From Leucosporidium creatinivorum (taxonomy: Eukaryota > Basidiomycota > Microbotryomycetes > Leucosporidiales > Leucosporidiaceae): 64,000 nt of DNA. The stretch's first letter is position 1; every line of letters begins with the position of its first letter. Shown one piece after another: positions 2,627-43,267 of this stretch. Made by a program: the position numbers and the translations under genes. The notes beneath the pieces were generated by a model. That model ran no database searches, was not told the DNA's origin, and worked only from the letters and a program-made list of their open reading frames with translations. The stretch lies in NCBI GenBank assembly GCA_001600635.1, contig BCKL01000011.1, positions 621,383 through 685,382 on the forward strand, given 5' to 3'.

Positions 2627-2875
2627 GTGAAGTGCAGAGAGCCGATCAGCGCGTCCGTTTCGAACTTGGCCTTCGGCGAGAATTGAGCTCGGGCCTTCTC
2701 CTGAGCGAATGACCTTTGAGATTTCGTCGCGTCCAAGGGTTGCTTCTCTTCATATAGCTGAATAGTAAGCTCTGACTACCGGTAGACTTTTTGAATTGAA
2801 TCAGTGCTAACCTACTTCTCTCCTCCAGCTCGCCTTCTGCTCGCGGCGCTCGACATGCTCTACGCGTTAGCGGTT
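2627..2875 (-). repeat. Inverted duplicate, copy 1 (partner 9169-9416)
   Basis: About 249 bases match the reverse complement of 9169-9416, with long identical stretches in the centre (around 2686-2735) and more change near 2770-2810. The edges are sharp: similarity stops just outside GTGAAGTGCAGAGAGCC on one side and CGCGTTAGCGGTT on the other. Read on the minus strand it carries coding-like sequence that includes the peptide EEKQPLDATKSQRSFAQ. It overlaps the downstream part of the F-box-like gene. Relative to copy 2 it has two extra bases near 2780-2810, which shift the frame. Confidence 0.85.
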
Positions 2876-3520: not shown

Positions 3521-6500
3521 ATGGCGGCAGAGACCATCACCATCGACTCGTCAAGCGACGACGACTCTCCGCCTCCCAACAGGCGAGTACCCCCCACCAG
3601 CAACCGGGCGCCTGCTCCTCGTGCGAGCCTTGGGGAATCCAGCTCGCAGCAGCGGAGGCTGAGTAGCGCCAACAGACCTCCTCAGGCCACTCATAGGTCC
3701 TCGACCAGAGGAGGGCCCGCCAGCGCGAGGAAGAGCTCCGGGAGCAGCGCGCCGAGCGGACGGGGTGCAGGAGCGCAGGCGAAGAGGAAGTCTATACAGC
3801 TAGCTATTACGGACTCGGATGACGAGGAGGAGGAGGAGGAAGAAGAAGATGTTGATGAGCTAGAGGTTGCCGACGCGATGCCGACGGACAAGGTGAGCTC
3901 GCCTAGAGGCTATTCGCCTCGAATACCCTTCCAGGACTAACCCCGTACAATATAGGACCAGCAGCAACTCGCTTCATCCGGCAGCGACGACGACGACCCC
4001 ATCACCCTGCGCCCTTCCGCCTCCCCTTCCAAAGCTCGCACTCTCTCGACCGCCTCTCACACCCACGGCAGCGCATCGCAAGCCCGCAAGTCTTCCTTCT
4101 CCAACAACAAGCTCCGGACCCTCCCTTCGCCGCGCGACAACCCCACCGCAGCTCTCCAGCGTCGTCCCAGCTCAACTCGGCCCAGCGACGGCGCCGAACC
4201 CCACCAATCGCTCGCCGATGCCAAGCACCCGTCCAGCCACTCCTCCTCGCACAAGCACACCCCCGAGACCAACGACCGAGCTCTTCCCGCCTCCTCAAAC
4301 GGTTCGACCTCAGGTTCAGGCTCGCAACGTCGATTCTCGGCGCCCATGACTTCGCAGTCTGGTCGTTGGATCCCACGTAAAAGCCTTCAGGCAGGCGTAG
4401 AGGGTAGCGCGCCTTGGAAAGATCGGCTCTCCTCGCCATCAGAGGACGAGACAGCGGACGATCCAGGACCGAGCAGGAAGGGAGCCAGCAGGCCAATGAC
4501 GTTCGACTCGGGAGGCAACGAGATCCTCGAGGTGAGCTCGGACGACGACGAGGAGCAGGAGAAAGCTACGGCCACGGCTCAGAAGCCCGTTTCGAAGCAG
4601 AAGAGCACGGAGGGAGCGGCTAGAGAGGACTCCCACGCCGTCAAGGACGACAGCTCGGTTGCCCCGAAGGCGGAAGAAGCTCGCAGTCCCACGAGCAAGT
4701 CCGTGCACGGAGGCAAGCGCTCCTCTACCGAATTCACTCCTCCCTCACCGCCGAAGCGACGCCTCTCCGCCACACTCCCCACGCTCGCTGCCTCGGCCGA
4801 GATCAAGAGCGACTGGCCGACCGAGGAAGAGCTCAACCGTCCACCTTCGGGTTGGCTCCATCCGGAGCTTCAAGCAGCCAACTCTCTTACGTCGGGCGCA
4901 TCGACCACGGCCGAGGACGACCAGATGGACCACCTCGGCGAGGACGACGGAGAGACCGCTCAGCAGGAGCAGCAGGAGCAGCAGGTGCAACAGGAGCAGC
5001 AGCTTCAGCTCATCTCGGACGATGAGATGGACGTCGACGAGGAGGACGAGCGCCAGATTTCCCCCGAACTTGGCCTTTCCTCCTACACGGCGGCGGAGAA
5101 GGGCAAGGGTCGGGTGACAGACCTCGATCAGGACGACAGCGCGCTCATGCCCCCTCCTCCTCTGCCGCCCAAACGACTCGGCCCGGTCGTCGCGACCGCT
5201 TCGGAGCTCGCCGAAGTCACTCGTATCGCATCAGCTCTGGCCGCCTCCGACGGCTCCGACTCCGACGCCAACGCCCCTCCCTCCACTGCCAGCGAGACCG
5301 CTCGCAAGTCTACTGGAGCGCCCATCAAACCGGGCTACGTTCGCAAGTCGACTGGAGGAGCCCCCGGCACGACTTTGGCTCGCAAGTCCGTCGTCTCGAA
5401 GCCGAAGCCTGTCGCGCATGCCTCGCTGGCAAGCGCTGGGAAGCGACCAAAGGCGATCACGTGGGCGGAGCTCATCGACTTGACGGGATCGACCGACGAG
5501 GAAGACGGCGGCTCTGAGGATGGAGACGACGACGAGGAAGATGACGAGGACGAGCAGGAGGGGCAGCCGACGCCGATGGAGACGGACGATTCGCCAAGGG
5601 CTCTATCGGACGTAGTCGAGGAGCAGGAGCCGATTGTGGGCGAGGGGCGCCCTTCCGACGAGGAGATGCCGAGGGAGGAGGAAGCCGCTGCCGAGGAGCC
5701 TAGCGGCCTAGCCGACGACCTCGCCGAGATGTCAGTCACCGAAGAAGGCGCCGCCGTGACTTTCGTCGAGACTACTATCAAGCACATGAGGAGCGTGACG
5801 CACGAGACCTCCGTGGACGGGGCTGCCACCAAGGAGAACGTCGAGGTCGTCTCGGCTCGACTTACGCGCTCGGGAACTCGGGGGGCACCGGCAGCACCTT
5901 CGACCAAGGCGATCAGGAAGAAGGACGCTGCGAAGACTGCCATCTTCAAGCCTGCACCACTCGAACACCTCCCCGAAGCGCCCGTCGAGACGCCCGCCGA
6001 GCTAGAGCGTCGCGCTCAAGCAGTATGTCGACCTTCGCGCGCCGTACTCTAGAATGTGGCTCACCAACGCTTCTTCACACAGTTCATGGACCGCCAACGC
6101 GCCACTCGCTCTTCCTGGCGCCAGATCGCTGGACCTTCGTTCCCCAGCGAGCTCCAAGAGATTGAGGACATCATTCGCCACGCCCAGCTTCGCGACCGAC
6201 GGGCCAAGTGGGCCAACGGAGACACCGCTTCCATTGTTCCGGATGCGGACGACACCGCCCTCCTCGAGTCCATCATCCATCAGGCCAACCTCGCCCATCT
6301 TCCTCGAGCCGCCAGCGACCTACCTCGAGTCCGCGTCGTCCCCACCTCGGACGGCCTTCCTCCCTACACCCCTCCTTGGGAGTTCGTCTACACGCACCGC
6401 GTACTCTACCCTCCCAACGTTCCGCCCACCCAGGCGCCGGGCTGCGGCTGCGAAGGCGACTGTGGCTCGGCCGAGAACTTCTCGAGTTGCGCGTGTCGAC

Positions 6501-8617
6501 TTCGACAGCAGCGCTCCAGCACCACCAAGAACCTCCTGCACGACCCGTTCCCTCGCAGTGGAGTCACCGGCTTTGCCTACACCGAGCACGGTCGCGTCAA
6601 AGACGACCTCTTTGAGAACAGCTCGATGGAGCCCATCATGTGAGCTTGCCGAGTAGCAGAGATCACACCGAGGCGCTACTGATCAGTTGACTCGTTCCTA
6701 CAGCGAGTGCAACTCGGAATGCGGCTGCGACGATTCATGCATCAACCGCGTAGGTCAACGCCTCTCGCTCTTACTCGGCTCTTCGCCTCATCGCTCACCG
6801 CTTCTCTGTGCAGGTCGTTGGGAAGATTCCTGCGATATCTGTAAGCTGCGACGCCACCCTCTCTATCCCGTCCCGCTGTCGTCATGGCTCTTCGACCTCG
6901 ATCTCCGCCGCCGAGCTGACCGCCTCCTCGCTCTTCATTGCAGGTCGACATCTTCAACACGGGCAGGAAAGGATGGGGTATGCTCCTTCTTGTCTCTTTT
7001 CCCAACGGCAGCCTTGCTGACTCGCCTCCCACGCTTTCCAGCCATTCGCAACCCTCCCTCGCATACCTACCAGCTCTGGCCCGGCGGCGAGGAGTTCACC
7101 CACGAGGGTCGCGTTATCAAAAAGGGTACGCCGATGGGAGTCTACGCCGCAGAGATGCTCCCGCACACTGAAGGAGTACGTTCCATCTCGTTTAGCGATC
7201 GCCGAACCGAGTGTCGCTGATCATCTCCGACCTTTGCTTCCCCAGGATCAACGCTGCATGTACGTGGATATTTGATAGCCCACAGCAGCATATCACTGAC
7301 CTTTGAATCTCTACTCGCAGCACCCTCTACGTAAATTGACTCGGAGCCTCTCGTCTCCCTCTTCGATGCACGACGCTGACCTGCTCTTGTACCACAGAAC
7401 CTTGTCGGGCGCAACTACCTCTTTGGTCTCGACCATGGTGCGAGTGAGTGCCGTCGCTACAGATGTTTCGTCAGCGCTCTCTCCTAATCTCTCCTCTCCC
7501 TCCCTTCCCTTCCTCCTCGCTTCTCTCGCTTCGTCCAATTCTACTCCTACTCCTCTCCACTCGACGTCTACCCTGCAACTCGTCCACCTCTACAAACACC
7601 TGCTTCTCACCATGCCGCCCACAGTCCTCGAAGAACTACGCCTCCAGCAACCCGACCTCATCGACCTCGCTCGGGCGGCGCAAGACGACGCCGACGCAGC
7701 GACTGCAGCTTCGCGTGGGCAGAAGGGCAAGAAGAAGAAGCAGAAATCGGAGAAGGCACGTCTCGCTGGCTCCAAGGCCGGCCTGAGGAAGCTGCGTGAC
7801 ATGGGACAAGACGCCTTCGAGGCCATGTCGGACACCGAGGAGGACAGCGACGGCAAGCCCGACGCGAGCAAGCTGGATCCGGCGCATGTACTCGACGCGT
7901 TCTTCTTCGGGAACGTGAGTCGTTCTTATAAGCTACTGCCCTTCCGCGCTCGCTGATCGTCTTTCCTCTCCCTTCTTCCTCACACTTGTTCCCTCGGCGT
8001 CCCCTCTCCCGTTCTGCACGACGCTCCTCGCGCACCTGGCGAATCACAGTGGACTCGGTTCGCCAACCACTCTTGCTCCAAGTTCAACACGGCCGTCTGC
8101 CCCGTCTTCGTCGACGAAGCCGACTGGTCTCGCCCTCTCTACGTCTTCATCGCTTCGTCCGACATTCAGGTAAGCTCATAACCACTAGACATTACTCGGA
8201 ATCACACTGACTCTGATACTGCTCGGCTACAGCCCGGCGAGGAGATTGCCATCACCTACCATGGACATCGCCCCGAACTCGACGACCTCGACCTCGCGAC
8301 GTACAAGAAGGAGGCCAACGAGAAGAGGGCAGGAGCCGACAAGTCGTGGCGTTGCTACTGTGAGTGATATCAACACCTCGGACGGCTTTTCATACGCTTG
8401 CACCCTCTTCTCGACCCTCTCGGCGGTCTCCACTTGCGCCGAGCAGCACCGCTGACTCGCTACCTCCCCCTCTAACACAGGCGGCGAGGACCTTTGCCGC
8501 GGAGTGATGTTCAACAACTACGAGCCTGACCTCGGCGACGATGATGAAGCGGAGGAGGAGGCTAAGGAGGCGAGGAGGACGAAGAAGAAGAAGAAGGGAA
8601 AGGGAAGGAAGTACTAA
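3521..8617 (+). CDS. clr4: SUV39/Clr4-type histone H3K9 methyltransferase with giant disordered N-terminus
   Basis: SET-domain lysine methyltransferase, expected to methylate H3K9 in nuclear heterochromatin. I read 14 exons: 3521-3892, 3956-6022, 6083-6639, 6704-6749, 6814-6840, 6944-6977, 7041-7175, 7246-7259, 7321-7330, 7398-7443, 7625-7914, 8050-8169, 8233-8359 and 8481-8617, about 1,326 residues. Roughly the first 930 residues are acidic, Ser-rich and low complexity, with ARKS motifs at K71, K169, K575, K588 and K601. Then come the pre-SET cysteines (GCGCEGDCG, CACRL, ECNSECGCDDSC), the SET core (GRKGWG, IKKGTPMGVYAAEM, RFANHSC, EEIAITY) and the post-SET motif CYCGGEDLCRG. I see no chromodomain. 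A Lys-rich insert (7690-7780) splits the SET. The spliced length is 3n+1: the GWG exon and the next exon are one base out of register, see findings. Confidence 0.93.
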
Positions 8618-9168: not shown

Positions 9169-9416
9169 AACCGCTAACGCGTAGAGCATGTCGAGCGCCG
9201 CGAGCAGAAGGCGAGCTGGAGGAGAGAAGTGGGTCAGCACTGATTCAAGTCGAAGTCAACGGGTACGCAGAGCTTACTATTCAGTTATATGAAGAGAAGC
9301 AACCCCTGGATGCGACGAAATCTCAAAGGTCATTCGCTCAGGAGAAGGCCCGAGCTCAACTCGCGCCGAAGTCCAACTTCGAGACGGACTGCGCTGTTCG
9401 GCTCTCTGCACTTCAC
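9169..9416 (+). repeat. Inverted duplicate, copy 2 (partner 2627-2875), upstream of DHODH
   Basis: About 248 bases, the reverse-complement partner of copy 1. Here one frame stays open across the whole repeat and includes EVNGYAELTIQLYEEKQ, so this copy seems closer to the ancestral coding sequence. It ends 8 bases before the DHODH ATG at 9424, so it supplies the DHODH 5' leader or proximal promoter. No transposon termini or target duplication were seen. Confidence 0.85.
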
Positions 9417-39043: not shown

Positions 39044-40481
39044 TTACTCCTCCTCCTGACCTTGACTGGGCTGGCGGAACTTGAGGTGCATCTATGCGTG
39101 AGAGGAGGGTGATCGAAGAGGAGCAAGAAGAGCGAAGCGCAAGGTCAGCGAGGTTGTAAGGCAAAGACGAGCGGCGGCGGCGACGAACCGTGAAGAAGTC
39201 GATGATCTGCGCGTTCGATACAAGTAGGAGAAAGTCAGAAAGCGCCTTCGTCTGACGGTACAGCAGGTCAGCACTCACGCGCTGAGGGCATCGTTCACGT
39301 GCGATGGCGGATGGCACGTATGTGACCGTGCCGTCCTCCTTCCTGCGAGTGAAGACAGGGTTAGCATGCCGGACGGATGGAAAGAAATCAGGAGTACTGA
39401 CCACTCGAGAAGGAACCGAAGGCCGGTGTTCTCCTCCGGCTCGTTGTCGACGGTATCGACCTTCTTGACGAGCTCCTGCGAAAGCGAGAACCGAGCATCA
39501 GCGCATCGTTCTACGAGCCTCCGAACGAGAGACTGGACTCACATCCCAATCGTGCTCCTTGTCCGCATACTTCTGATCGTGTGTCGAGTACTTGTGGTCG
39601 TCGACCACATCCTCCTCATCGACCTCCTCCTCCTGCTCCTCCTCGGCCTGCTCCTCCTCGACCTCGACCTTGGTCTCCTTCTTCGCTTTCTTAGCGACGG
39701 GAGCCTTCTTCTCCTTCTTCTCCTTCTTGGGAGGAGGCGACGCCTTCTTCGCCTTGGACGAGGTGCCGTTGGACTTGGTAGAGGCGGCGGACTTCCTGCG
39801 CGACTTGGGGGCCTCCTCCTCCTCCTCATCATCGTCCTCAACGACCTTGGACGCCCGTCGCTTCTTGCTGTCGCCCTTCGTAGGCTGCTCGTAGCCCTGC
39901 ATGGCTTCAGCCTCTTCCTCGGATCCAGGGGGGAACCGCTCGTGCGCCTCCTTGGCGGGGACCTTGGCCCAGTACTTGTTGACGAGCTCGGGGCATCCCC
40001 TGTAGGAGGTGTAGGGCGAGGGAGCACGCGCTAAACGAACGAGCGCGTCGAGAGGGGAAGCGAGAGCCAACTCACTCAGCCGACTCCTCTTCGATCCAAG
40101 TAAGCTCGCCGGGGTATCCTACCCACGAAACGTAGTACTCGAGGGCATACTTCTTGGCCTATGGCAGAGGAAGCCGAGAGCAAGGCGAAGGGGAATCAGC
40201 GACGCGCTCTCTGATCTTGTTTGCCCATGCTCCAAGTGCCGTTCTGTAGCTTTGCGACGCGCTTCGGGAAGGGAGACCAGGTACTCACCAGCCTCCTGTG
40301 TGAAATGACCTTCTCGACTTCGTCTGTAGGCGTACAAGAGCGCACGAGGGGAGGCAAAGACCGGGTCAGCTCGTCGCGTCTGGCAGCTCGTTTGGGCTGC
40401 TTGCTCACACTCTGCCTCGTCCTCTGATTCAGGCTCGGGCTGCGACTTTCTCCTGCTAGCTTTACCGTAGTTCTTGGGCAT
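39044..40481 (-). CDS. swi6: Heterochromatin protein 1 (chromodomain plus chromoshadow)
   Basis: Reader of H3K9 methylation that dimerises on heterochromatin. The start MPKNYGKASRRKSQPEPESE runs into the chromodomain: EYEVEKVISHRRL, AKKYALEYYVSWVGYPGELT, then WIEEESAECPELVNKYW. The aromatic cage is present (Tyr of EYEVE, Trp and Tyr of SWVGY). The hinge is long and charged (KKRRASKVVEDDDEEEEEAP, KKEKKEKKAPVAKKAKKETK, EEEQAEEEQEEEVDEED), the type that binds nucleic acid in HP1 proteins. The chromoshadow follows: DELVKKVDTVDNEPEENTGL, RFLLEWKEDGTVTYVPSAI, ARERCPQRIIDFFTMHLKFR. It is split into about eight exons, roughly 320-330 residues. It is convergent with MGS1 and encodes the expected reader of the mark written by the Clr4-type gene in this window. 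Confidence 0.95.
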
Positions 40482-40888: not shown

Positions 40889-43267
40889 ATGAAGTCCTAC
40901 ACAGCAGCAGAAGTCTCCAAGCATGACAAGGAAGGGGATTTGTGGACGGTGATCAATGGGGACGTCTATGTGAGCCGCCTGTGCTGGGTTTAGCGCCCGT
41001 TGCGAGCAAGCTGACCTTGTCTTCCTGCAGGACCTCTCGCGGTTCCTCGACATGCACCCGGGAGGATCAGGAGTACTGCTAGCTAGTGGTATCGCCGGTG
41101 GAGACAGCTCAGAGGCCTTCTTCAGTCTTCATCGCTCGGAGGTGAGTGGTTGCTGGCGCCGAAGCTCGACAATTCGCTCACATCTCCATCCACCTGCTGC
41201 AGGTTCTCACCAAGTACCAACGCTACAAGATCGGTACCCTCTCGGATCCCACCGGCTCCCCCTACCTCCTTCCCATCGCTGGCGAGCTCTCCCAAGTCCC
41301 CTCGGCCGAGCCTCCCTGGCTCGTTCCCACCTACCGCTCGCCGTACTTCAAAGACTCGCACTACGCTCTACAGAAGGAGATGCGTTTCTTCTTCGACACC
41401 TACGTCAAGAAGGAGGCACGCGAGCGCGAGGTCAGCCATGAGCCGCCCTCGGCCGAGCTGATGTTACTGATGGGCAGTCCGAGGTGGGAGATCAGTGAGC
41501 ACTTGCGGCGGGGGAGAATCGAGCCGGTACTGATCTGATCTGACTCTCCTGCTCATAGATGCCATGCGCATGGGACCCGGCGAGCATCTCCAAGGCCGAA
41601 AGCTGCCTGGAGGAGTTTCGCCCGACGAGTTCGACTACTTCCACGAGATGGTGGTCGTTCAAGAGCTCGTGCGAATCGGTAGTCCAGGGTACATGGCCGG
41701 ACTTCAAGCCGGCATGGTCATCGGTGAGTAGCGACTGTCGGGAGCTGTCCACCGCCCGATCTCGGCGCTGATTCGGCTCCTTCTTTGTCTCCTCCTTCCG
41801 CCTCTCCTTCATCCCCAACAGGTCTCCCACCTGTCCTCAACTTTGGCACAGACAAGATGAAGGCCGAGGTGCTCCCCGAGATCCTGGCGTACGCTCTCGT
41901 CTTGAGCCTATCGACGGGCCTCGCTGACCTCCTACGTCTCGCAGCGGTCGCAAGTTCATCTCTCTCGCCATCAGCGAGGCGGCAGCCGGCAGTGATGTGC
42001 AAGGCATGACCACGAGGGCAACCAAGACGGCCGACGGCAAGTTCTGGGAGGTTACGGGCACCAAGGTGAGCGCCGAAGCTCGCTCGGATACCCCAGTATC
42101 TAGGGTAGCTACTACCAACCTCGATTTCGCGTTTTAGAAGTGGATAACGCAGGGTCATCGCTCAGACTTCTTCATGACCGGCGTTCGGACTGGCGACCGC
42201 TCGCTCTCCATGCTCCTCATCCCTCGCTCCGAGCAAGTCCACACCAAGGTCATCAAGACGTCCTACTCTCACGCCGCCGGAACTGCCTTTGTGACCTTCG
42301 ACAAAGCCCGCGTACCGGTCGAGAACTGCCTCGGCGGCGAAGGAAACGGCATCAAGGTCATCCTGTCGAACTTCAATCATGAGAGGCAAGTCGGCTGTCT
42401 GCAGGTATTCGACAAGCCTCTGACTAATCTCCCTACATCCCGCAGGTTGGTCATTTGCCACCGTATTGCCCGTCAAAGCCGCACCATCTACGAGGAGACG
42501 ATGAAGTGGGCGCACCTTCGCAAGGTGTTCGGCAAGCCTCTCATTGAGAACCCCGTTATTCGTCAGAAGTGAGCTCTTCTCCTACCTCTCTCAGCTACCT
42601 ATACTTCCTGAGCCGCGACACGAGCTGACCTTATACCCTCCCCTTCTCCTCGAACCGCGCTTGCTCGCTGTGCCCTGCTCGGCGATCGCAGACTCGCCAA
42701 GATGATTGCCAAAGTTGACGCTGGACAAGCGTGGCTCGAGCACATCGTTTTCCAAATGCATGTTAGACTCTCCAAGCTTGCTCGAAGCCCAGCTGACTCT
42801 TCTAAACAGGTGCAACATGACCTACCAGGAGCAAGCCCAGCGTCTCGCTGGACCCATGGCGCTCCTCAAGTTCTACCTCTCACGCTCGCAAGGAGAGATC
42901 GTCGATGATGCCGTGCAGATCTGGGGAGGCCGAGGTATCACGCAGGGTGGCATGGGCGTTTACATCGAGTGAGTGGCCCAGCGCCGAGCTCGTCGTCTCT
43001 TCTCGTTCGCCACGTTGACCCTCGCACCCATCTACAGGCAAGCTCAAAGGACGTTCAAGTTTGATTCAATTGTGCGTGACTTGGTTCCAGCTCCCTATGA
43101 CCTTTGCTGATCCTTCTCCACCCGCAGCTCGGCGGCTCCGAGGAAGGTGAGCTCGTCTCCATCGCCTCCGGCCGGCTCGTCGCTGATTTCTGTCCCTCAC
43201 TCAAACAGTTCTTGCGGATCTCGGTGTACGTCAGGCTAGCAAGATCATGCCCAAGGCGGTGCTGTAG
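40889..43267 (+). CDS. Cytochrome b5-acyl-CoA dehydrogenase fusion
   Basis: Flavoenzyme that oxidises acyl-CoA thioesters, fused to a heme-binding domain. The N-terminus is a cytochrome b5 fold: MKSYTAAEVSKHDKEGDLWT, VINGDVYDLSRFLDMHPGG, with the His of HPGG and a second His in AFFSLHRSE as axial ligands. The dehydrogenase follows with MRMGPGEHLQGRKLPGGV, FHEMVVVQELVRIGSPGYMA, SLAISEAAAGSDVQGMTTRA and KKWITQGHRSDFFMTGVRTG. Then come FDKARVPVENCLGGEGNG and DDAVQIWGGRGITQGGMGVY. About 12 introns; roughly 550 residues ending KIMPKAVL, without a peroxisomal SKL tail. This b5-first architecture is common in fungi; the substrate chain length is unknown. Confidence 0.93.

What the first reader, a model, noticed from the sequence alone, without database searches (positions are those of the whole stretch)
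5297..5389. Triple H3K9 mimic inside the H3K9 methyltransferase (ARKS/RKST array)
Residues 572-602 of the Clr4-type protein contain TARKSTG (K575), RKSTGGAP (K588) and ARKS (K601). TARKSTG equals H3 residues 6-12 exactly, and RKSTGGAP equals H3 8-16 minus K14. Two more ARKS sites lie at K71 (3725-3736) and K169 (4082-4093). Established precedent: mammalian G9a carries an ARKT mimic that is automethylated and bound by HP1, and Clr4 regulates itself by automethylation at other sites. An array of five, three within about 30 residues, could be a built-in platform that recruits the HP1 encoded at 39044-40481. The protein shows no chromodomain of its own, so the mimic could replace that read-write link.
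Basis: partly seen in the sequence, partly recalled or inferred. Interest (0 to 1): 0.85.

Follow-up and report, generated by a model that had tools for sequence, protein, structure and literature searches.

The report
Histone-tail copy inside its own methylase
A fungal enzyme that probably marks histone H3 for gene silencing carries, in its own floppy tail, an exact seven-residue copy of the histone site it marks plus further look-alike sites, which suggests but does not prove that it marks itself to control its activity or to recruit a silencing partner.

Summary
A 14-exon gene (3521-8617) encodes a 1326-residue SUV39/Clr4-class protein (Pre-SET and SET, no chromodomain found). Its disordered N-terminus has TARKSTG (K575), RKSTGGAP (K588) and ARKS (K601) at exact 13-residue steps, plus ARKS at K71 and K169 and RKS at K90 and K266. 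Not chance: 4 ARK[ST] against 0.06 expected, 0 of 20,000 shuffles. In this 27.7-Mb genome the TARKSTG-coding pattern hit six places: four H3 genes, one H3 variant and this gene.

The sites are not equal. By published rules, Clr4-type writing wants RKST (K575, K588) and HP1 reading wants Ala at -2 (K71, K169, K575, K601). Only K575 meets both; K588 has Val.

An automethylated, G9a-like HP1 dock is plausible; a tethered pseudosubstrate is nearly as plausible, because the IDR of Clr4 inhibits its catalytic domain (PMC12418378). Lacking a chromodomain is not unusual (DIM-5, Cryptococcus Clr4).

Extras: three SUMO-interacting-motif-like stretches, a spaced RKS pair in cohesin Scc3, and an inverted repeat flanking the gene. 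Verdict: new variant of a known kind, function unproven.

The parts
3521..8617 (+). SUV39/Clr4-class (KMT1) methyltransferase gene, 14 exons, 1326 aa; about 812 N-terminal residues look disordered (exons 1-2), Pre-SET 909-1014, SET 1059-1248, post-SET CxCx4C
   Evidence: model; Pfam; PDB matches; exon 2 stop-free over 689 codons (0 of 500 base shuffles stay open), third-position GC 0.742
5297..5317 (+).
5342..5365 (+). RKSTGGAP (K588), H3 8-16 without K14; fits the writer rule, Val at -2 breaks the HP1 reader rule
   Evidence: rules
5378..5389 (+).
3725..3736 (+).
4082..4093 (+).
3785..3793 (+). RKS at K90 (KRKSI), not H3-like at -2 or +2; possible Aurora-type kinase site (consensus recalled)
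4376..4384 (+). RKS at K266 (PRKSL), not H3-like at -2 or +2; possible Aurora-type kinase site (consensus recalled)
4523..4534 (+). SUMO-interacting-motif-like ILEV followed by SSDDDEE (aa 314)
   Evidence: pattern defined after seeing the motifs
5003..5014 (+). SUMO-interacting-motif-like LQLI followed by SDDEMDVDEED (aa 474)
   Evidence: pattern defined after seeing the motifs
5471..5482 (+). SUMO-interacting-motif-like LIDL followed by TGSTDEED (aa 630), 29 residues after K601, just before a strongly acidic stretch (aa 641-680: 20 D/E, 1 K/R)
   Evidence: pattern defined after seeing the motifs
39044..40481 (-). HP1/Swi6-like gene, 283 aa: chromodomain 25-75 with Y25, W48, Y51 at the cage positions, chromoshadow domain 215-273; the candidate reader

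Best explanation
The N-terminal disordered tail of this SUV39-class enzyme without a chromodomain carries a tethered copy of its own substrate. Shown: the sequence, its excess over chance, and its identity at K575 with the organism's own H3 tail. Inferred: the SET domain methylates K575 (best site) and K588 in cis or trans. Methylated K575, with help from K601, K71 or K169 if these are also methylated, then docks the chromodomain of HP1, as the automethylated mimics of G9a/GLP do, so that HP1 binds the writer directly. The serine after each lysine (the H3 S10 equivalent) would be an off switch. K588 is probably a substrate or competitor site and not an HP1 site.
For: Exact TARKSTG, RKSTGG and four ARKS far beyond shuffles. 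The TARKSTG-coding pattern hits only H3 genes (4), an H3 variant (1) and this gene (1) in this genome. Spaced RKS pairs with common codons hit only H3 genes (4), this gene (2) and a STAG/Scc3 gene (1). Among the 7 RKS sites Ala at -2 is over-represented (4 of 7, binomial P 0.005; 4 of 28 RK[ST] in the other sampled frames, one-sided Fisher P 0.03), so the sites look H3-like and not merely basic; both tests were chosen after seeing the sites. The Clr4 preference R(-1), S>K,R>T(+1), T>>C>S(+2) is met by K575 and K588 (PMC7700585 passages); SUV39H1/2 recognise RKST (PMC8303541 passages). The Cbx3 chromodomain binds methylated ARKT of G9a K185 at 9-28 uM (PMC3325965 passages). An HP1 with intact cage positions is encoded nearby. 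Automethylated mimics of G9a/GLP bind HP1 and are blocked by phosphorylation of the next residue (PMC9768651 passages).
Against: No methylation or binding data and no orthologues, so conservation is untested (searches found none; the collections are prokaryotic and viral). Only 1 of 7 RKS sites satisfies the writer and reader rules together. In ADNP an ARKS motif gave only a minor contribution, no methylation was detected and a methylated peptide did not bind HP1 (PMC3022755 passages). Clr4 is known to automethylate elsewhere, in its autoregulatory loop, at sites that do not match its H3 motif.
Confidence: 0.4

Rival explanations
1. Pseudosubstrate autoinhibition: the H3-like basic island (about aa 572-607) folds back into the H3 groove of the SET domain and competes with the histone tail, and automethylation, RNA or phosphorylation releases it. 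HP1 need not be involved.
For: Basic residues of the Clr4 IDR bind its catalytic domain and inhibit it, probably at the acidic H3-tail site (PMC12418378: abstract, passages, section 27). In the gapped HMMER alignment Arg faces Clr4 K455 and Asp faces K472, with a Lys one position on, so control by the autoregulatory loop may differ here.
Against: Clr4's IDR acts through basic residues and needs no H3 copy; four ARKS sites spread from K71 to K601 are more than one pseudosubstrate needs; Ala at -2 is enriched, which points to an HP1-type reader, although SUV39H2 also reads A7 (PMC8303541 passages).
Confidence: 0.3
2. Kinase or nucleic-acid sites: the RKS repeats are basophilic-kinase (Aurora/PKA-like) phosphosites or RNA/nucleosome-binding basic patches, and the H3 likeness follows from shared kinase preference.
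For: All 7 sites are RKS; three (K90, K266, K601) read RKS[ILV], the Ipl1/Aurora consensus (recalled). Clr4 binds RNA via its IDR, which also helps target nucleosomes (PMC12418378 abstract); the basic domain of Suv39h2 adds RNA affinity (PMC5538826, start of abstract in the listing).
Against: This does not explain exact TARKSTG plus RKSTGGAP, nor the enrichment of Ala at -2.
Confidence: 0.18
3. Neutral drift in a repetitive, basic and serine-rich disordered region: a degenerate 39-nt tandem repeat, or a fragment copied from an H3 gene, with no present function.
For: The three sites are exactly 39 nt apart, and units 1 and 2 share 23 of 39 nt. The DNA at K588 shares 18 consecutive bases with H3 genes L005 and L006; random recoding of the same peptide reached that alignment score in only 129 of 3000 trials, which hints weakly at shared DNA.
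Against: Outside the RKS codons the units share only 15, 7 and 12 of 30 nt, so flanks have drifted while RKS stayed. K71 and K169 lie far away. H3 similarity outside the cores is not significant (856 of 5000 shuffles score as high), so a copied H3 fragment is not shown.
Confidence: 0.12

Closest known systems
Automethylated H3-like mimics of mammalian G9a (K185, K239) and GLP (K205), bound by HP1
   Same: H3K9 methyltransferase carrying ARK[S/T] in an N-terminal, non-catalytic region; the motif fits the HP1 chromodomain rule; a serine or threonine at +1 could switch it
   Different: Here a SUV39/Clr4-class enzyme; K575 matches seven residues of H3, whereas the G9a K185 peptide (HRARKTMS) shares only the ARK[S/T] core; several sites in one protein; methylation and HP1 binding unproven
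Clr4 autoregulation: ARL automethylation (K455, K472) and inhibition by basic residues of the IDR
   Same: Same enzyme class; self-recognition by the catalytic domain; basic patch in a disordered N-terminal region
   Different: The ARL lies between SET and post-SET and its sites do not match the H3 motif; the features here are exact H3 copies hundreds of residues N-terminal of the SET domain
Cryptococcus neoformans Clr4 and Neurospora DIM-5 (no chromodomain)
   Same: SUV39-class catalytic domain without a chromodomain; the Cryptococcus protein has about 1,400 disordered N-terminal residues (PMC10135481 passages)
ARKS motif of ADNP; H1.4 K26 ARKS
   Same: ARKS in non-H3 proteins tied to HP1
   Different: Not inside the writer; in ADNP the chromoshadow motif dominates and ARKS is minor
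SETDB1 N-terminal SUMO-interacting motif
   Same: H3K9 methyltransferase with a SIM in its N-terminus (PMC13108219 passages)
   Different: Here three SIM-like stretches in a SUV39-class enzyme; SUMO binding untested

Membership tests
SUV39/KMT1 (Clr4/DIM-5) methyltransferases | Pre-SET with nine cysteines | tested here: met
   Pfam PF05033 2e-11, aa 909-1014; nine Cys read in GCGCEGDCG, SSCACRL, ECNSECGCDDSC
SUV39/KMT1 (Clr4/DIM-5) methyltransferases | SET core (RFxNHSC, catalytic Tyr) and post-SET CxCx4C | tested here: met
   PF00856 1.2e-11; RFANHSC, EEIAITY and CYCGEDLC align with RFFNHSC, EELTFDY and CKCGSANC of the top PDB matches, which include 1mvh, named Cryptic loci regulator 4
SUV39/KMT1 (Clr4/DIM-5) methyltransferases | N-terminal chromodomain (usual, but absent in DIM-5 and Cryptococcus Clr4, so not strictly defining) | tested here: not met
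   Only SET and Pre-SET at E up to 0.1; exceptions in PMC10135481
SUV39/KMT1 (Clr4/DIM-5) methyltransferases | H3K9 methylation activity | not testable with these tools
   needs an enzyme assay
Automethylated histone mimic (G9a/GLP type) | H3K9-like motif in a non-catalytic part of the methyltransferase | tested here: met
   TARKSTG at K575, RKSTGG at K588, ARKS at K71, K169, K601
Automethylated histone mimic (G9a/GLP type) | Motif fits the writer's substrate preference | tested here: met
   R(-1) S(+1) T(+2) at 2 of 7 RKS sites, K575 and K588, against the Clr4 rule quoted; the preference of this enzyme itself is unknown
Automethylated histone mimic (G9a/GLP type) | Motif fits the HP1 chromodomain (Ala at -2) and an HP1 is present | tested here: met
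   Ala at -2 at 4 of 7 RKS sites; both rules together only at K575; HP1 with Chromo and Chromo_shadow
Automethylated histone mimic (G9a/GLP type) | Automethylation of the lysine and methyl-dependent HP1 binding | not testable with these tools
   needs mass spectrometry and binding assays
Automethylated histone mimic (G9a/GLP type) | Motif conserved across orthologues | tested here: inconclusive
   No orthologue found in genome contigs or viral contigs, collections of prokaryotes and viruses; no second copy in the own genome at E up to 1, searched without regard to introns
Clr4-type autoregulatory loop | Automethylated lysines between SET and post-SET (K455, K472 equivalents) | tested here: inconclusive
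   In a gapped HMMER alignment Arg faces K455 and Asp faces K472, with a Lys one position on; the H3 mimics themselves are not in this loop
SUMO-interacting motif proteins (SETDB1-like recruitment) | Hydrophobic core followed by acidic/Ser residues | tested here: met
   Three stretches (aa 314, 474, 630); 1 of 20,000 full and 8 of 10,000 local shuffles reach three; the pattern is my own and post hoc
SUMO-interacting motif proteins (SETDB1-like recruitment) | Binding to SUMO | not testable with these tools
   needs a pull-down

The most novel reading that the evidence does not exclude
A SUV39-class enzyme without a chromodomain has built a tethered histone-H3 tail into its own disordered region. 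It writes K575/K588 on itself, HP1 reads K575 and the other ARKS sites, and SUMO-binding stretches beside the array add a second docking code. The writer is thus held in heterochromatin through marks on itself instead of marks it reads on H3. The spaced RKS pair in the tail of cohesin Scc3 would be a second user of the same HP1-docking code in this genome.
Probability: 0.2. Interest if true: 0.82.

Novelty: new variant of a known kind. Interest (0 to 1): 0.57.

Why it matters
If the mimics are written and read, the read-write link of heterochromatin spreading would not need a chromodomain in the writer. That bears on how DIM-5-like and basidiomycete Clr4-like enzymes without one are targeted. 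K575 (both rules), K588 (writer only) and K601 (mainly reader) give built-in separation-of-function sites. They would also allow a direct test of whether SUV39-class disordered tails inhibit as pseudosubstrates.

Tried and rejected
The Pre-SET family search of the own genome found nothing, also not this gene, probably because introns split the domain; it is no evidence of absence. The protein search found 7 matches at E up to 1, all exons of this gene. Origin from an H3 gene at DNA level: 129 of 3000 random recodings score as well, so only a weak hint. A condensed copy of the whole H3 tail (K9-like then K27-like): not supported (856 of 5000). Uniqueness of ARKST alone: rejected, 12 other places with common codons, frames not checked. 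Scc3: first queries with its C-terminal half found no Pfam family and no PDB match; upstream exons gave STAG and SCD. Chromoshadow (PxVxL) docking: two matches to [PV]x[VI]x[LVIM] in the whole protein (PRVRV at 894, PAISV at 1020), next to or inside the folded catalytic part, so weak; the first aligns with PEVTL of the Clr4 chains. Structure prediction was not run: there were no homologues to align, and a single-sequence fold of a disordered tail would not inform. The SIM pattern was written after seeing the motifs; 14 of 204 sampled frames (this one included) have at least one and 2 of 204 have three.

In a first, failed attempt to file this report I wrote that a Lys stands opposite Clr4 K472; the alignment shows Asp there with a Lys one position on.

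Papers: passages (find) of PMC10611923, PMC10135481, PMC3325965, PMC3022755, PMC8303541, PMC7700585, PMC9768651, PMC13108219 and PMC2662427; of PMC12418378 outline with abstract, passages and section 27; of PMC3325965 also section 6. All other papers only as search listings. That I found no paper describing such an array rests on searches of an open-access library and on their listings.
Full report
What is there. The window lies at G000:C11:621383-685382 of a 27.7-Mb genome in 63 contigs. Intron-rich genes and the HP1/SUV39 pair fit a fungus, but the organism was not identified here. The gene at 3521-8617 (+) was modelled by hand: 14 exons, 13 introns all GT..AG with consistent phase, 1326 residues. 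An alternative in-frame ATG lies 41 codons upstream. Exon 2 alone is a stop-free frame of 689 codons; 0 of 500 base shuffles stay open. Pfam finds Pre-SET (909-1014) and SET (1059-1248) and nothing else at E up to 0.1. The best PDB matches are H3K9-specific methyltransferases (6z2a, 2.1e-15; 1mvh, named Cryptic loci regulator 4, 1.3e-14), and RFANHSC, EEIAITY and CYCGEDLCRG align with their catalytic motifs. A search of the own genome with the catalytic part, blind to introns, gives 7 matches at E up to 1, all exons of this gene, so it is probably the only KMT1.

The mimic. Residues 572-602 read TARKSTGAPIKPGYVRKSTGGAPGTTLARKS. TARKSTG is identical to residues 6-12 of this organism's own H3 tails, read from four H3 genes. 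The three lysines are exactly 13 residues apart. There are 7 RKS sites in residues 1-812: K71 (ARKSSG), K90 (KRKSI), K169 (ARKSSF), K266 (PRKSL), K575 (TARKSTG), K588 (VRKSTGG) and K601 (ARKSVV).

Chance. Composition shuffles of residues 1-812 give a mean of 0.063 ARK[ST] and 0.54 RK[ST] against 4 and 7 observed; 0 of 20,000 reach either, 0 of 20,000 have two RKSTG, and 1 of 20,000 has three RK[ST] within 31 residues. Shuffling inside 40-residue blocks gives 0, 0, 0 and 1 of 10,000. In 263.5 kb of this genome (the window plus 20 stretches, one of them chosen because it holds the Scc3 gene), 204 non-overlapping stop-to-stop frames of 150 aa or more hold 8 ARK[ST] and 35 RK[ST]; two frames of this gene hold 4 and 7 of them, and no frame outside this gene has more than one ARK[ST]. 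Genome-wide, the degenerate TARKSTG DNA pattern hits 6 places (reversed control 3): four H3 genes, one H3 variant and this gene. If 3 chance hits per genome is the rate, one in the reading frame of this 1326-codon gene is expected about 7 times in 100,000 (my arithmetic). Two CGCAAGTC words 20-50 bases apart occur at 7 places (reversed control 0): four H3 genes, this gene twice, and a STAG/Scc3 gene. The tool warns that very common words are skipped, and intron-split motifs are missed. ARKST alone is not special (18 hits, 6 of them H3, the variant or this gene; control 6; the other 12 not read in frame).

Which sites could work. Two published rules were applied. Writer: Clr4 prefers R at -1, S>K,R>T at +1 and T>>C>S at +2 (PMC7700585 passages), and SUV39H1/2 recognise RKST (PMC8303541 passages). 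Reader: Ala at -2 fills a pocket that holds only a methyl group and is called a strict requirement for Cbx3 (PMC3325965, section 6). Both rules are met only at K575. K588 meets the writer rule only. K90 and K266 meet neither in full. Ala at -2 is enriched among the seven (4 of 7; binomial P 0.005 against the tail's composition; 4 of 28 in the other sampled frames, one-sided Fisher P 0.03); both tests were chosen after seeing the sites. The HP1 at 39044-40481 is real: Chromo 1.6e-8, Chromo_shadow 5.7e-13, with Y25, W48 and Y51 opposite the cage positions of human CBX5, and a chromoshadow match to Swi6.

How it most likely works. I favour automethylation of K575 (and K588) followed by HP1 docking on K575, with the serine at +1 as a switch, by analogy with G9a/GLP (PMC9768651 passages; PMC3325965 passages). 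The closest rival is pseudosubstrate inhibition. In Clr4 basic residues of the IDR bind the catalytic domain and inhibit it, and the authors think the target is the acidic H3-tail site (PMC12418378); a tail with the exact H3 sequence could do this better. The two are compatible: a tethered substrate can inhibit until it is methylated and then dock HP1. Phosphosites or RNA/nucleosome patches explain RKS but not A(-2), T(+2), G(+3). Caution comes from ADNP, where ARKS contributes little, no methylation was seen and a methylated peptide did not bind HP1 (PMC3022755 passages). The missing chromodomain is not in itself remarkable: DIM-5 and Cryptococcus Clr4 lack it, the latter with about 1,400 disordered residues (PMC10135481 passages). 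The autoregulatory-loop lysines of Clr4 are not clearly kept: in a gapped alignment Arg faces K455 and Asp faces K472, with a Lys one position on.

Origin. The three 39-nt units share 23, 15 and 20 of 39 nt in the pairs 1-2, 2-3 and 1-3, but only 15, 7 and 12 of 30 outside the RKS codons. This fits an old tandem repeat whose core was kept, or convergence. At K588, 18 consecutive bases equal the H3 genes L005 and L006; random recoding reaches the score in 129 of 3000 trials, a weak hint that does not show descent from an H3 gene. Similarity to the H3 tail beyond the cores is not significant (856 of 5000).

Beyond the coordinates. The same tail has three SUMO-interacting-motif-like stretches (ILEV-SSDDDEE, LQLI-SDDEMDVDEED, LIDL-TGSTDEED). 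Three are reached in 1 of 20,000 full shuffles and 8 of 10,000 local shuffles; 2 of 204 sampled frames, this one included, have three. The pattern is mine and post hoc. SETDB1 is a known H3K9 methyltransferase with a SIM (PMC13108219 passages). The only gene besides H3 and this one in the spaced-RKS search, a STAG/Scc3 gene (STAG 6.6e-33, SCD 4.9e-25), has PRKSTTANSSARKS in its C-terminal tail. In S. pombe, Swi6/HP1 co-precipitates Psc3 (Scc3/SA) after cross-linking, while the same paper found no such interaction in human cells (PMC2662427 passages). This may be a second HP1-linked protein with the code; with one gene it is only a lead.

What could not be done. Nothing here shows methylation or HP1 binding. 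The verdict is that the feature is real and non-random, with a plausible but unproven function: a new variant of the known histone-mimic idea, in an enzyme class for which I found no such array described in the listings of searches of the open-access library.

Noticed in passing
window 2627-2875 and 9169-9416: An inverted repeat of about 249 nt (three pieces, 91-96% complementary, 6.3 kb between the inner ends) flanks the methyltransferase gene; a 236-base query from one arm matched only the two arms in the whole genome. It could allow inversion of the locus, or give hairpin RNA if both arms are transcribed together.
   Followed up: partly
L015 / L029 (G000:C1, about 522,300-526,900): A STAG/Scc3 cohesin gene whose C-terminal tail holds PRKSTTANSSARKS, the only spaced RKS pair with common codons found outside H3 and the methyltransferase.
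   Followed up: partly
L002 (G000:C10:764594-764613, minus): A divergent H3 variant (Pfam Histone 1.5e-20 on a rough exon join) keeps TARKSTGG, has a Gly-rich tail insert and a Trp in FRWQGQTFTILQEAAEAHL that recalls CENP-A (label recalled, not tested).
   Followed up: partly
window 4523-4534, 5003-5014, 5471-5482: Three SUMO-interacting-motif-like stretches in the methyltransferase's disordered region.
   Followed up: partly
window 7625-7914: Exon 11 (290 nt, about 97 residues, with the Lys-rich run RGQKGKKKKQKSEKARL) sits between YLFGLD and the NHSC region; most of it has no counterpart in the Clr4 alignment, which breaks there.
   Followed up: no
window 39044-40481 (minus): The HP1 itself has RRKS twice, at residues 10-13 of its N-terminal extension (SRRKSQPE) and in its hinge (SRRKSAAST), neither with Ala at -2.
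   Followed up: no
L008, L009, L010, L012-L014: Other chromodomain loci: L008 and L010 are integrase-type ORFs with a C-terminal chromodomain (they look like Ty3/gypsy chromoviruses), L009 a separate protein with YVVEAVLKRR..YLVKWEGY, L012-L014 look like CHD-type remodellers; identities judged by eye. The window's own HP1 was not among the 7 hits, so intron-split chromodomains are missed.
   Followed up: no
window about 40891-41500 (+): Divergently transcribed next to HP1, an ORF begins MKSYTAAEVSKHDKEGDLWTVINGDVY and continues after an intron DLSRFLDMHPGG (read by eye), which looks like a cytochrome-b5-type haem domain (label recalled).
   Followed up: no
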